Notes under the pieces: model-generated
Told to the model about the DNA's origin: nothing
Databases searched by the model: none
The model's input: the letters and a program-made list of their open reading frames with translations, nothing else
Origin: Scylla paramamosain
Lineage: Eukaryota; Arthropoda; Malacostraca; Decapoda; Portunidae
Length of the DNA stretch: 64,000 nucleotides
Assembly (NCBI RefSeq): GCF_035594125.1
Contig: NC_087156.1
Location: forward strand, 12,172,806 to 12,236,805
Direction of reading: 5' to 3'
Part shown: piece by piece, positions 1 to 64,000 of the stretch
How the letters are laid out: every line of letters begins with the position of its first letter
Position numbering within the stretch: the first letter of the stretch is position 1
Position numbers and translations under genes: made by a program

Positions 1-1687
1 TGTTAGGAAATAAAGCACTAAAAAGCAGGGCAATCACATTACATAGGGATAAAACCAATTTTTACCAAGAACTTCCCTTTAAGATTTTTTGAGCTCCTTA
101 CATACAAAAACGCTAAAACGCATGCAAAACACCCATTATGGAAAAACATAATAACATTACCAAAAACACGTATTTTGAGAGTTTTTTATCATGTTACCTA
201 TAAAAACACTTAAATACATGTTTGGGAAACGAAAAAAAACATTAGGAGAAACATGTATTTTCAGTGTTTTTAAGTTTCTTAAGTACTAAAAAGCTGAAAG
301 CCAGAAATAACACTCTTTATAGAGAGAAAAAATAAATGAATAAATAAAAAAAATAGCAATTTTTTTTTTGTCATTCATATTCATAGGTACTGAGATGCCG
401 AAAGTCTGGCAAAATTTAGGTAAATTATGTGGAAAAAAAGAACATTATCAAAAAAAGTTAATTTTAGCTTTTTTTTCGGACTGTTATGTACCAAACCCTA
501 AAGTGCATCCAAAGCCACGTATATGGGGAGATTACACGATCTTACCAGAAACCTCTCTTTTGAGTGTTTTCTTTTTTAGCATGTTAGGCATCAAAAGGAT
601 AAATAATATGTAAATCACTCAATATGGGATTGCAAAACAAAATTACTGAAAACGTGTCTTTTCGTTGTTTTACGTAGTAAAACGCTAAAACGGATGCAAA
701 CCAACCAAAATGAAGAAATAGAATAACGTTACCAAAAAAGTATATTTTGAGTGTTTTTGAGCCTGTTAACCACAAAAAACGCGAAAATGGATGCAAAGCA
801 TTCTATATTGGGAAACAAAAGGACATTACGAGAAACGTGTATAATGAGTGTTTTATGGTTTCACAAGAACCACAAGGCAAAAAAGGCAAAATCTCGTATA
901 TATGGATAAGTTTCTTAGATACCAAAATGCTGAAACTCATGAAAAACAGAACAACCTTACTATATTTTACTAATATTTTTACTTACTAATGCGTATATTT
1001 TGAGAGCTTTTCACATTCTTAGTTACCAAACCCCCAAATTGCATGCGAAATTAGATTTATGTGGGAAAAAATGACATTCCCAGAAAAGTGTCTTTTAAGT
1101 GTTTTTGAGCGTGATAGGATATAAAGGACTAAAAAGCAGGGGAATCGCATTAAATTCGAATAAAACCAATTTTTACCAAGAACTTGCCTTTAAGTGTTTT
1201 TGAGCTCCTTAAATACCAAAACGCTAAAACGCCTGCAAAACACACTTTATGGAGAAACATTACCAAAAACATGTATTTTGAGTGTTTTTGATCATGTTAT
1301 CTATAAAAACGCTTAAATACATAGAAAGAACCTTATGTTTGGGAAACGAAAGGACATTACGAGAAACGTGTATTATGAGTGTTTTTAAGTTCCTTAAGTA
1401 CCAAAAAGCTAAAACCCACAAATAACACTATTTATTTAGAAAAAAAATAACTAAATAAAAAAAGAAAAAAATAGAATTTTTATTTATTTATTTATTTTTT
1501 TTTTTTTTTGTCATTCATATTCATAGGTACCGAGATGACAAAATTCTGGGAAAATTCAGGGTAATTTTTCGGACTGTTATGTACCAAACCCTAAAGAGCA
1601 TGCAAAGCCTCCTATGTGAGGAAATTGAATGACTACCAGAAATCTGTCTTTTTAGTGTTTTTCAGCATGTTAGACAGCAAAACGATA

Positions 1688-1746
1688 AATAATAATAATA
1701 ATAATAATAATAATAATAATAATAATAATAATAATAATAATAATAA
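1688..1746. repeat. (AAT)n microsatellite inside monomer G
   Basis: About twenty AAT units lie where monomer G normally has only a short ataaataata stretch. The rest of G continues on both sides, so this looks like expansion in place and not an insertion. The related unit near 43,320 lacks the expansion. Confidence 0.9.
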
Positions 1747-61800: not shown

Positions 61801-64000
61801 ATTCCTTTGCTTTTTAGTGCTTTATTGCCTATCACGCTCAAAAACACTCAAAAGACACTTTTCTGGTAATGTCATTTTTTTTTTTTCCCACATAAAGCTG
61901 GTTTCGCATGCAATTTGGGATTTTGGTAACTAAGAATGTGAAAAGCACTCAAAATACACGCCTTTATTAAAGTTTTTCTGTTTCTCAATTAAGAGTGTTA
62001 TTCATGAGTTTTAGCATTTTCGTATCTAGGAAACTTTTCCATATACACGAGTTTTTGCGTTTTTTGGCTTGTGGTTCTTTTGAACTATAAAACATTCATT
62101 ATACACTTTTCTTGCAATGTCGCTTTCTTTTCCAATATAGAGTGCTTTGTATCAATTTTCGCGTTTTTTTTTTGTAGGTAACAAGCTCAAAAACACTCAA
62201 AATATACCTTTTTGGTAATGTTTTTCTGTCTCTTGGTATTGGTTGGTTTGCATCTATTTTAGCGTTTTTTACGTAAAACACTGAGAAGACACGTTTTCAG
62301 TAATTTTGTTTTGGTTTACCATATAGAGTGAGTTCCTTATTATTTATCGTTTTGGTGCCTAACATGCTGAAAAACACTCAAAACAGATTTCTGGTAAGGT
62401 CGTTTAATTTCCTCATATGGGAGGCTTTGCATGCACTTTAGTGTTTGGTACATAACAGTCCAAAAAAAAAAAGCTAATATAAACTTTTTTTTTTATAATT
62501 CTCTTATCATATAATTGCCCTAATTTTTCCCAGAATTTTGTTATCTCGTACCTATGAAGGTGAATAACAAAAAAAAAAAAACAAAGAAAACCCTTTTATT
62601 TATCTATTTTTCATTTTTTATTTTTTTTCTAAATAACGAGTGTTATTTGTGGTTTTAGCTTTTTGGGAGTTAAGGAACTTAAAAACACTCATAATACATG
62701 TTTCTCGTAATGTCCTTACGTTTCCCAAACATAAGGTTCTTTGCATGCATTTAAGCGTTTTTATAGATAACATTATCAAAAACACTCAAAATACATGTTT
62801 TTGGTAATGTTTGTTAATGTTTCTCCGTAAAGTTTGTTTTCCATGCGTTTTAGCGGTTTGGTATGTATGGAGCTCAAAAACACATATTGGCAAGTTCTTG
62901 GTAAAAGATGGTTTTATTCCCATGTAATGTGATTGCCCTGCTTTTTAGTACTTCATTGCCTAACACGCTCAAAAACAATTAAAGGACACTTCTGGTAATG
63001 TCATTTTTTTCCCTCATAAAGCTAGTTTCTTATACTATTTTGGGTATTGCTAACTAGGAATATGAAAAACACTCAAAATACAAAAATTTGCTAAGGTTGT
63101 TCTGTTTCTCAATTAAGATTGTTATTCATGAGTTTCAGCATTTTGGTATTTAAGAAACTTCTTTATATGCACGAGTTTTTGCGTTTTTCTACGTAAAACA
63201 CTGAGAAGGTACATTTTCAGTAATTTTGTTTTGGATTCCCAAATAGAGTGAGTTCCTTATTATTTATCATTTTGGTGCTTAACATGCTGAAAAACACTCA
63301 AAAGACAGATTTCTGGTAAGGTCGTTTAATTTCCTCATATAGGAGGCTTTGCATGCACTTTTTGGGGTTTGGTACATAAGAGTCCGAAAAAAAAGCTAAA
63401 ATGAACTTTTTGATAATATTCCTGAATTTTTCCAGAATTTTGCCATCTCGGTACCTATGAAGATAAAAAAAAATTCTCATTTTTTTCTAAATAAAGAGTG
63501 TTATTTGTGGGTTTTAGCTTTTTGGCAGTTAAGGAACTTAAAAAAAAAACACTCATAATACACGTTTCTCGTAATGTCCTTTTGTTTCCCAAACATTATG
63601 TTCTTTGCATGTATTAAGGCGTTTTTATAGATAACATGATAAAAAAAACACCCAAATTACATGTTTTTGGTAATTTTATTATGTTCTCCATAAAGTTTGT
63701 TTTGCATACGTTTTAGCGGTTTGGTATTTATGGAGCTCAAAAACATTTAAAGGCAAGTTCTTGGTAAAAATTGATTTTATTCCAATGAAAAGTGATTGCC
63801 CTGCTTTTTAGTGCTTTATTGCCTATCACGCTCAAAAACACTCAAAAGACATTTTTCTGGAAATGTCATGTTTTCCAACATAAATCTGGTTTCGCATGAA
63901 ATTTGGGTTTTTGGTAACTAAGAATATGAAAAACACTGAAAATACACGAATTTGGTAAGGTTGTTCTGTTTTTCAATTAAGAGTGTTACTCATGAGTTTC
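55881..64000 (-). repeat. HOR satellite block 6
   Basis: Minus-strand HOR; type A landmarks near 55,962, 57,061, 58,694, 59,711, 60,671, 61,793, 62,921 and 63,786. The 1.63-kb spacing reflects a six-monomer duplication (57,435-58,565). The short spacings (960 and 865 bp) reflect lost monomers, for example most of D near 60,470, where a short aacacttaaa tandem replaces it, and H-J near 63,185. A small T-run with (GT)n sits at 60,689-60,712. No gene is visible to the window end. Confidence 0.88.
57435..58565 (-). repeat. Six-monomer tandem duplication within the HOR
   Basis: In window order, monomers H, G, F, E, D, C (about 57,435-57,998) are followed by a second H-C set (about 57,999-58,565) before B and A. 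Read in the satellite's own direction, H passes straight into C at the shared ttttgagtgttttt. Both halves are about 565 bp. It is the product of an out-of-register exchange. Confidence 0.78.

What the first reader, a model, noticed from the sequence alone, without database searches (positions are those of the whole stretch)
1..64000. A twelve-monomer higher-order satellite repeat (about 1.1 kb) in a probable crustacean genome
Twelve diverged monomers of 84-106 bp repeat in fixed order for about 25 units. This is the organisation known for primate alpha satellite, and well-described HORs of this size are few outside vertebrates. All twelve types appear to descend from one roughly 97-bp ancestor that also survives here as monomeric DNA. 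I do not recognise the satellite.
Basis: seen in the sequence. Interest (0 to 1): 0.85.

Follow-up and report, generated by a model that had tools for sequence, protein, structure and literature searches.

The report
Old twelve-part satellite repeat, likely crustacean
More than half of this window is a tandem repeat whose 1.1-kb unit holds twelve different versions of one 96-letter sequence in fixed order, like human centromere DNA in layout but apparently from a crustacean, and now old, broken up and partly turned around.

Summary
A 95-position profile finds 547 monomers (45.6 of 64 kb). Order-blind comparison peaks at 11-12 monomer lengths. Types A-L occur 30-37 times each in ordered runs; 21 units are complete and canonical, median 1,095 bp. 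Each of 11 testable types forms a near-pure clade. Ordered runs cover 37 kb; the rest is monomeric satellite of the same family and LINE pieces.

(2) Same-type identity is flat with distance, about 86%: burst, then decay. (3) Five collinear tracts (null mean 0.035) show later duplications. (4) The head-to-head junction at 50.92 kb is a 1.8-kb inversion that splits one G monomer. (5) No conserved box or hairpin tendency was found.

LINE proteins point to a crustacean. Best reading: a decaying HOR relic, probably heterochromatic. New member of a known kind. The whole-genome search did not complete, so copy number and chromosome position are untested.

The parts
1..2348 (+). HOR run, 26 monomers (left array)
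2485..4601 (+). HOR run, 24 monomers
4805..8171 (+). HOR run, 37 monomers; contains the seed unit 5463-6562
8220..10878 (+). HOR runs 8220-10046 and 10105-10878, 30 monomers
11977..12419 (+). HOR run of 5 monomers (L A B C D) after the RT insert
12473..14040 (+). monomeric (non-HOR) stretch; from 12795 on it lies in the tract duplicated inverted at 54884-51610
15847..22856 (+). HOR runs 15847-17960 and 17960-22856, 77 monomers; monomers starting 18010-20423 are collinear with those starting 20228-22603 (two-unit offset)
22855..37292 (.). monomeric satellite with about ten orientation switches (two rest on one 49-bp hit), simple repeats and LINE inserts; no 12-mer order
38438..46753 (+). HOR runs 38438-41681 and 41732-46753, 92 monomers (middle array)
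49109..50929 (+). 1.8-kb inverted segment of HOR (run of 20 monomers from 49147), 95.6% identical to 16705-18442; starts inside a G monomer
50921..50929 (.). head-to-head inversion junction (C monomer joined to an inverted G head)
50924..51821 (-). HOR run, 10 monomers; inverted copy of the segment ending at 16710
53619..55766 (-). monomeric stretch; the part up to 54884 lies in the inverted copy of 12795-16063 (92.4% over the 3.3-kb tract)
55769..64000 (-). HOR runs 55769-58008, 58011-60466, 60540-63162 and 63201-64000, 90 monomers (right array, inverted); its monomers at 55769 and 55864 are only 74% and 83% like their nearest same-type copy and may be monomeric
41732..43473 (+). collinear tract (monomer starts) with 85-1883 (20 monomers, 92.5%)
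60833..62693 (-). collinear inverted tract (monomer starts) with 42910-44748 (21 monomers, 90.3%)
15734..15846 (+). B monomer of one of three copies of a LINE | B | J-K-L boundary; others at about 38351 (+) and 51930 (-)

Best explanation
A higher-order-repeat satellite array. An AT-rich 96-bp satellite first existed as a diverse monomeric array. Within it a roughly 6-monomer block was doubled, its halves diverged, and the resulting 12-monomer stretch (about 1.1 kb) was then amplified as one block. Shown: fixed order, position-specific clades, 6+6 substructure, monomeric relatives alongside. Inferred: amplification by unequal exchange or rolling-circle copying in a short burst. After the burst the units decayed nearly independently, with no local homogenisation; LINEs and simple repeats inserted, kilobase-scale pieces (including a LINE/HOR boundary) were duplicated, and inversions produced head-to-head arrays (the duplications and one inversion are read from the sequence; their order is inferred from identities). 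Likely role (inferred, not tested): pericentromeric or other constitutive heterochromatin, a displaced older layer rather than the active centromere core.
For: Order and clades. Six-mer substructure: the unit consensus aligns to itself at half-unit shift (72.8% over 529 columns, 79.4% over 253) against 60.9-65.4% for the nine other-register alignments of 350 columns or more among the best 25; offset-6 mean type identity 0.671 against 0.583-0.611 at the other offsets, permutation p 4e-4. Burst and decay: same-type identity 0.861 under 1.6 kb (n=316), 0.862 at 12-25 kb (n=887), 0.849 inverted beyond 45 kb (n=977); adjacent units share no more private changes than distant ones (median ratio 1.67, n=10, against 1.72, n=164), and external branches are 88% of the unit tree; units 91.6% to consensus. 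Later events: five collinear tracts against a null mean of 0.035, max 2, in 200 permutations; a G monomer split by the inversion and intact in the left copy; three LINE|B|JKL stretches 91-95.5% alike.
Against: The units are not a perfect star: shared non-consensus bases are 2.25 times the independent expectation over 21 units (1668 against 741), and supported clades join units of different arrays. Uneven site rates could add to this; so could old exchange between units. Types D and J do not pair in the 6+6 scheme (0.557; D is nearest K), and A, C, F, G and J are not mutual best partners with their offset-6 mates. Shorter other-register alignments of the unit consensus (103-263 columns) reach 68-80%. 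Nothing here tests chromosome position, abundance or CENP-A binding.
Confidence: 0.75

Rival explanations
1. An active HOR array under ongoing concerted evolution by unequal crossing-over, like live human alpha-satellite arrays; this window is simply divergent or lies near its edge.
For: A local two-unit duplication (monomer starts 18010-20423 with 20228-22603, 90.6%); a doubled J occurs in two units, and the nearest relatives of the J copies at 2724 and 2810 are those at 9495 and 9582 (one way only).
Against: Adjacent same-type monomers are no more alike than distant or inverted ones, and adjacent units share no excess of private changes. The closest long matches (about 90-97%) are duplicated tracts, four of the five lying 18 to 42 kb apart. 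LINE inserts and breaks persist inside the arrays.
Confidence: 0.12
2. The opposed arrays are a selected macro-dyad: long inverted HOR arrays that can pair and help build (peri)centromeric chromatin, as proposed for Tribolium.
For: A + array (38.4-46.8 kb) faces a - array (50.9-64 kb); monomers at 42910-44748 and 62693-60833 are collinear inverted copies, 90.3%. The T. madens paper describes such symmetries (PMC13081366, abstract and passages).
Against: Only one window; the junction itself comes from a 1.8-kb inversion splitting a monomer; orientation switches in the monomeric region look disordered; monomers have no excess hairpin tendency (mean z 0.01 for 80 sampled monomers).
Confidence: 0.15
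3. Assembly artefact: collapsed or mis-joined satellite reads created the inversions and boundaries.
For: Satellite arrays are hard to assemble (general knowledge); the genome search did not complete in 14 attempts, so other contigs could not be examined.
Against: The duplicated pieces differ by 4-9% and same-type monomers by about 14%, which long reads can separate; the breakpoints lie inside monomers. The 12-mer order itself recurs 30-37 times per type and cannot come from a mis-join.
Confidence: 0.08
4. The array is the internal repeat of a transposable element rather than a satellite.
For: RT-bearing pieces lie in and beside it: 3 of 6 translated pieces have a reverse-transcriptase domain.
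Against: By similarity the inserts fall into two LINE groups plus one unmatched RT piece, at scattered points and in both orientations. Element ends around the arrays were not systematically searched for.
Confidence: 0.03

Closest known systems
Primate alpha-satellite higher-order repeats (and their flanking monomeric and older divergent HOR layers; partly recalled)
   Same: Fixed order of diverged monomers, same-position identity far above neighbour identity, monomeric relatives beside the HOR
   Different: Monomer about 96 bp, not about 171 bp (171 bp is stated in an abstract listed, PMC6718397); same-type monomers about 86% alike and no local homogenisation; 6+6 substructure; head-to-head arrays. 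Sequences were not compared
PlSAT75-664 of the crayfish Pontastacus leptodactylus (PMC7859515, passages seen)
   Same: A decapod satellite described by its authors as a HOR
   Different: That unit is one 411-bp monomer plus four direct copies of a piece of about 70 bp; here twelve monomer types. Sequences were not compared
Tribolium madens TmSat1/TmSat2 with macro-dyad symmetries (PMC13081366, abstract and passages seen)
   Same: Subunits from one progenitor of about 110 bp, higher-order units, opposed subarrays of up to tens of kilobases
   Different: An insect, with simpler units, highly abundant, conserved inversion sites; here one window, a 12-mer, and an inversion site that splits a monomer. 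That paper states that such symmetries were documented only in Tribolium to date

Membership tests
Higher-order-repeat satellite DNA | Several diverged monomer types in fixed order, repeated many times | tested here: met
   19 of 28 K-to-K intervals canonical, intervals broken by gaps over 150 bp left out
Higher-order-repeat satellite DNA | Same-position monomers across units more alike than neighbours within a unit | tested here: met
   0.855 against 0.601
Active (homogenised) HOR array | Near-identical units kept alike by ongoing exchange, neighbours most alike | tested here: not met
   mean same-type identity 0.858, flat with distance
Alpha satellite | Monomers of about 171 bp | tested here: not met
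   monomer model of 95 positions
Centromeric satellite | CENP-A occupancy, primary-constriction location, high abundance | not testable with these tools
   The genome search unanswered in 14 attempts; no chromatin data
Satellite macro-dyad symmetry (Tribolium type) | Opposed subarrays of the same satellite over several to tens of kilobases | tested here: met
   + 38.4-46.8 kb against - 50.9-64 kb, the latter interrupted by a LINE and monomeric stretch
Satellite macro-dyad symmetry (Tribolium type) | Recurrent, conserved inversion sites across the genome | not testable with these tools
   only this window was available

The most novel reading that the evidence does not exclude
A crustacean (peri)centromere type built from a three-level satellite (monomer, 6-mer, 12-mer) arranged in opposed arrays, which would extend both large regular HORs and array-level dyad symmetry beyond the groups where I found them described, as a convergent solution in Malacostraca.
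Probability: 0.2. Interest if true: 0.75.

Novelty: new member of a known kind. Interest (0 to 1): 0.5.

Why it matters
Large regular HORs are mostly discussed for primates; in the papers I could search, the one decapod HOR that I saw described has a simpler unit (PMC7859515, passages). This window preserves several steps in one place: the monomeric pool, a 6-to-12 doubling, a burst, and later duplication and inversion with readable breakpoints. It lets one ask whether HOR formation needs a conserved protein box (none was detected here) and how HOR layers die.

Tried and rejected
Conserved binding box: the generic alignment suggested that GAGTGTTTTT and the monomer end change slowly within types, but local-alignment trimming hides changes at hit ends. 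In a global alignment of the 21 complete units that block is at 0.82 of expectation against 0.96 elsewhere, and at least five phase-shifted blocks are lower; rejected, though weak constraint is not excluded. Monomer hairpins: the 12 unit-consensus monomers have z between -1.5 and +1.8; 80 sampled monomers mean z 0.01, 46 insert pieces -0.32; rejected. CpG-driven decay: C to T is 0.078 at CpG against 0.062 elsewhere, G to A 0.085 against 0.080, so no strong CpG effect. HOR order inside the monomeric regions: in five blocks single lags stand out on few pairs (0.729 at lag 14, 11 pairs, 30.0-33.6 kb; 0.706 at lag 7, 10 pairs, 12.5-14.0 kb; 0.699 at lag 15, 6 pairs, 53.6-55.7 kb); left open. RNA genes: none in Rfam at gathering scores, no tRNA with ARAGORN. 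Exact-pattern scans: no match in viral contigs or prokaryote genomes; by their description these collections are not where a crustacean genome would be, and records near the window's own genome may be left out. Whole-array collinearity: apart from the five tracts, identities of successive monomer pairs are only weakly correlated (r 0.00-0.17 over 1-4 steps), so the arrays are not simple copies of each other. The BLAST part printed no hits, probably because its scoring set is not supported; redone. Raw whole-window autocorrelation does not show 1.1 kb among its top 40 lags.

Full report
What was checked. The finding claims twelve diverged monomers of about 97 bp in fixed order, repeated about 25 times. 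I built a monomer profile from one seed and iterated it on both strands. Greedy selection gave 547 non-overlapping monomers, 341 on + and 206 on -, covering 45,617 bp; the model has 95 positions. AT skew changes sign with array orientation, and GC-richer islands coincide with inserts.

Is the order real? Two kinds of test were run. Without order information: a repeat finder lists a 300-nt family of 26 direct copies, many spaced 1,042-1,133 bp or about twice that; and 457 of the 547 monomers (those with at least 70 model columns; 90 shorter ones dropped) were clustered. Written along the sequence, the cluster names form a repeating series, and mean identity by lag is 0.725 at 11 monomer lengths and 0.674 at 12, against 0.608-0.653 at lags 1-10 and 13-21. 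With twelve profiles seeded from the unit at 5463-6562 and iterated, 433 of 529 adjacent pairs follow A-to-L order, monomeric stretches included. Runs of at least four in order hold 411 of 559 typed hits and 36,952 bp. Types occur 30 to 37 times in these runs; 21 units are complete and canonical, 1012-1126 bp, median 1095. Of 28 K-to-K intervals without a gap over 150 bp, 19 are canonical; the other 9 lack, double or swap monomers.

On a FastTree tree of the 457 monomers, types A-H, J, K and L each have a clade with F between 0.97 and 1.0 and support 0.63-1.0; type I (63 bp) is represented by one row and type C by 16. Identity 12k places apart is 0.855 (n=289), neighbours 0.601 (n=262), other 0.615 (n=3898); because these runs were chosen by type order, this illustrates rather than proves. 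Base-level autocorrelation of the whole window has 96 bp and its multiples but no lag near 1.1 kb among its top 40, although some 4-kb pieces show 1102, 1100, 1073 and 1133; varying unit length may blur it. Tandem Repeats Finder looks only to 500 bp and so reports no 1.1-kb row.

A third level. The unit consensus (1101 bp) aligns to itself at half-unit shift: 308-829 with 832-1357 at 72.8% and 5-256 with 579-829 at 79.4%. The nine other-register alignments of 350 columns or more among the best 25 are at 60.9-65.4%; several shorter ones reach 68-80%. Mean type-to-type identity is 0.671 at offset 6 and 0.583-0.611 at the other offsets; random re-orderings of the types reach this in about 4 of 10,000 cases, and about the same after removing each type's general closeness. 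B-H and E-K are mutual best partners; A-G, C-I and F-L add to it; D-J does not (0.557).

Origin. Monomers outside HOR runs (125 of the 457 rows) interleave with the HOR types on the tree instead of forming one clade; backbone support is often weak. In the three monomeric regions they are 0.63-0.66 identical on average, mostly nearest to A, H, B, F or E. The simplest reading is that HOR types were sampled from a diverse monomeric array, as proposed for alpha satellite (recalled). The monomeric DNA is a pool of cousins and not the ancestor itself.

Dynamics. Within-type identity averages 0.858 and does not fall with distance: 0.861 below 1.6 kb (n=316), 0.862 at 12-25 kb (n=887), 0.870 beyond 45 kb (n=98) on the same strand; 0.849 beyond 45 kb inverted (n=977). 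Units are 91.6% identical to their consensus on average; adjacent complete units share no more private changes than units over 8 kb apart (median ratio 1.67, n=10, against 1.72, n=164), and external branches make up 88% of the unit tree. This is what a burst followed by independent decay predicts, and what ongoing unequal exchange between neighbours does not. Against a pure star: shared non-consensus bases are 2.25 times the independent expectation (1668 against 741), and supported clades join units of different arrays. Part of this comes from later duplications: five collinear tracts pass a score that permuted data pass 0.035 times on average (200 permutations, maximum 2). By monomer starts they are 85-1883 with 41732-43473 (20 monomers, 92.5%), 18010-20423 with 20228-22603 (27, 90.6%), 16882-17854 with 49279-50243 (11, 94.2%), 42910-44748 with 62693-60833 inverted (21, 90.3%) and 18010-18393 with 50497-50880 (5, 96.7%). 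Outside such tracts successive monomer pairs are only weakly correlated (r 0.00-0.17 over 1-4 steps).

The inversion. Array orientation flips at about 50.92 kb. The left locus is contiguous: 15700-16710 matches the right locus reversed (51961-50921, 94.7%), and 16705-18442 matches it directly (49109-50929, 95.6%). In the right locus one G monomer is thus split, its tail at 49109 and its head ending at 50921, while the left G is whole. So the right locus carries an inverted 1.8-kb segment, and the left state is taken as the older one (polarity inferred from the intact monomer). The larger inverted duplication spans at least 12795-16063 with 54884-51610, 92.4%. A boundary made of a LINE end, a B monomer and J-K-L occurs three times (about 15.73, 38.35 and, reversed, 51.93 kb); pairwise identities of the three stretches are 91-95.5%, higher than between HOR units, so these duplications probably came after the burst.

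Function. I looked for a conserved protein-binding box and for hairpin tendency and found neither (the hint is an alignment-edge effect). Substitutions at C and G positions (about 14%) far exceed those at A and T (about 5%), with little CpG effect. The most likely role, by analogy with old HOR layers beside centromeres (recalled), is passive heterochromatin; this is inference.

Source organism. The LINE at 26810-29965 has an open frame of 1051 codons with endonuclease and reverse-transcriptase domains. A second RT piece (11145-11993) has an 85% match over 47% and a 59% match over 99% to Penaeus proteins, but the best named hit is a catfish protein (55% over 98%) and catfish proteins dominate its named hits among the 120 listed of 3703. 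Malacostraca is likely, a decapod plausible, the species unknown.

Literature. I searched for HORs with crustacean, decapod, crab, shrimp and insect terms; three of these lists were capped (20 of 47, 40 of 979 and 25 of 178 shown). Passages of PMC7859515 describe a HOR in Pontastacus leptodactylus made of one 411-bp monomer and four copies of about 70 bp, and call regular HORs in beetles usually dimeric. PMC13130569, on crayfish satellitomes, has no occurrence of the six terms I tried, HOR among them; further passages were seen. PMC10454600 and PMC12692304 were seen in passages. PMC13081366 (abstract and passages) describes opposed satellite arrays in Tribolium and states that they were documented only there. 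The Tribolium castaneum HOR paper is not held. In these searches I saw no report of a 12-mer HOR in a crustacean; subscription journals and supplements were not covered.

Limits. The whole-genome tool did not answer in 14 attempts, so abundance, position and other arrays are unknown. All conclusions rest on one 64-kb window.

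Noticed in passing
window 26810-29965 +: Open 1051-codon LINE ORF (endonuclease + RT) inside monomeric satellite, which suggests a young insertion; related pieces at 35986-36899 (94.1%, inverted) and about 46754-48031 (80.9%).
   Followed up: partly
window 14034-15739, 37332-38348, 51925-53625: Second LINE group, three pieces; in the two longer ones a 42-bp stretch is 90-95% complementary to itself (15437-15478 and 52182-52223).
   Followed up: partly
window 4600-4807: Short GC-rich piece ending in (TTA)n, like a SINE or LINE tail, inserted in an E monomer; (AAT)n also at 1688-1746.
   Followed up: no
window 24289-24654 and 23606-23686: Long (AT)n (366 bp) and (TG)n (81 bp) runs near the start of the rearranged monomeric region, close to orientation switches at 23.3-24.3 kb.
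   Followed up: no
window 33628-34540: Tandem Repeats Finder reports a 469-bp period (1.9 copies, 75% matches), about five monomers, in the monomeric region: perhaps a small independent multimer.
   Followed up: no
window 2724-2897 and 9495-9669: Two units 6.8 kb apart both carry a doubled J monomer, a shared unit variant (2355-3270 and 9115-10047 are 88.5% alike).
   Followed up: partly
unit consensus, types C-D: The C/D border holds a long A-run followed by a T-run of variable length, the most indel-prone part of the unit by eye.
   Followed up: no
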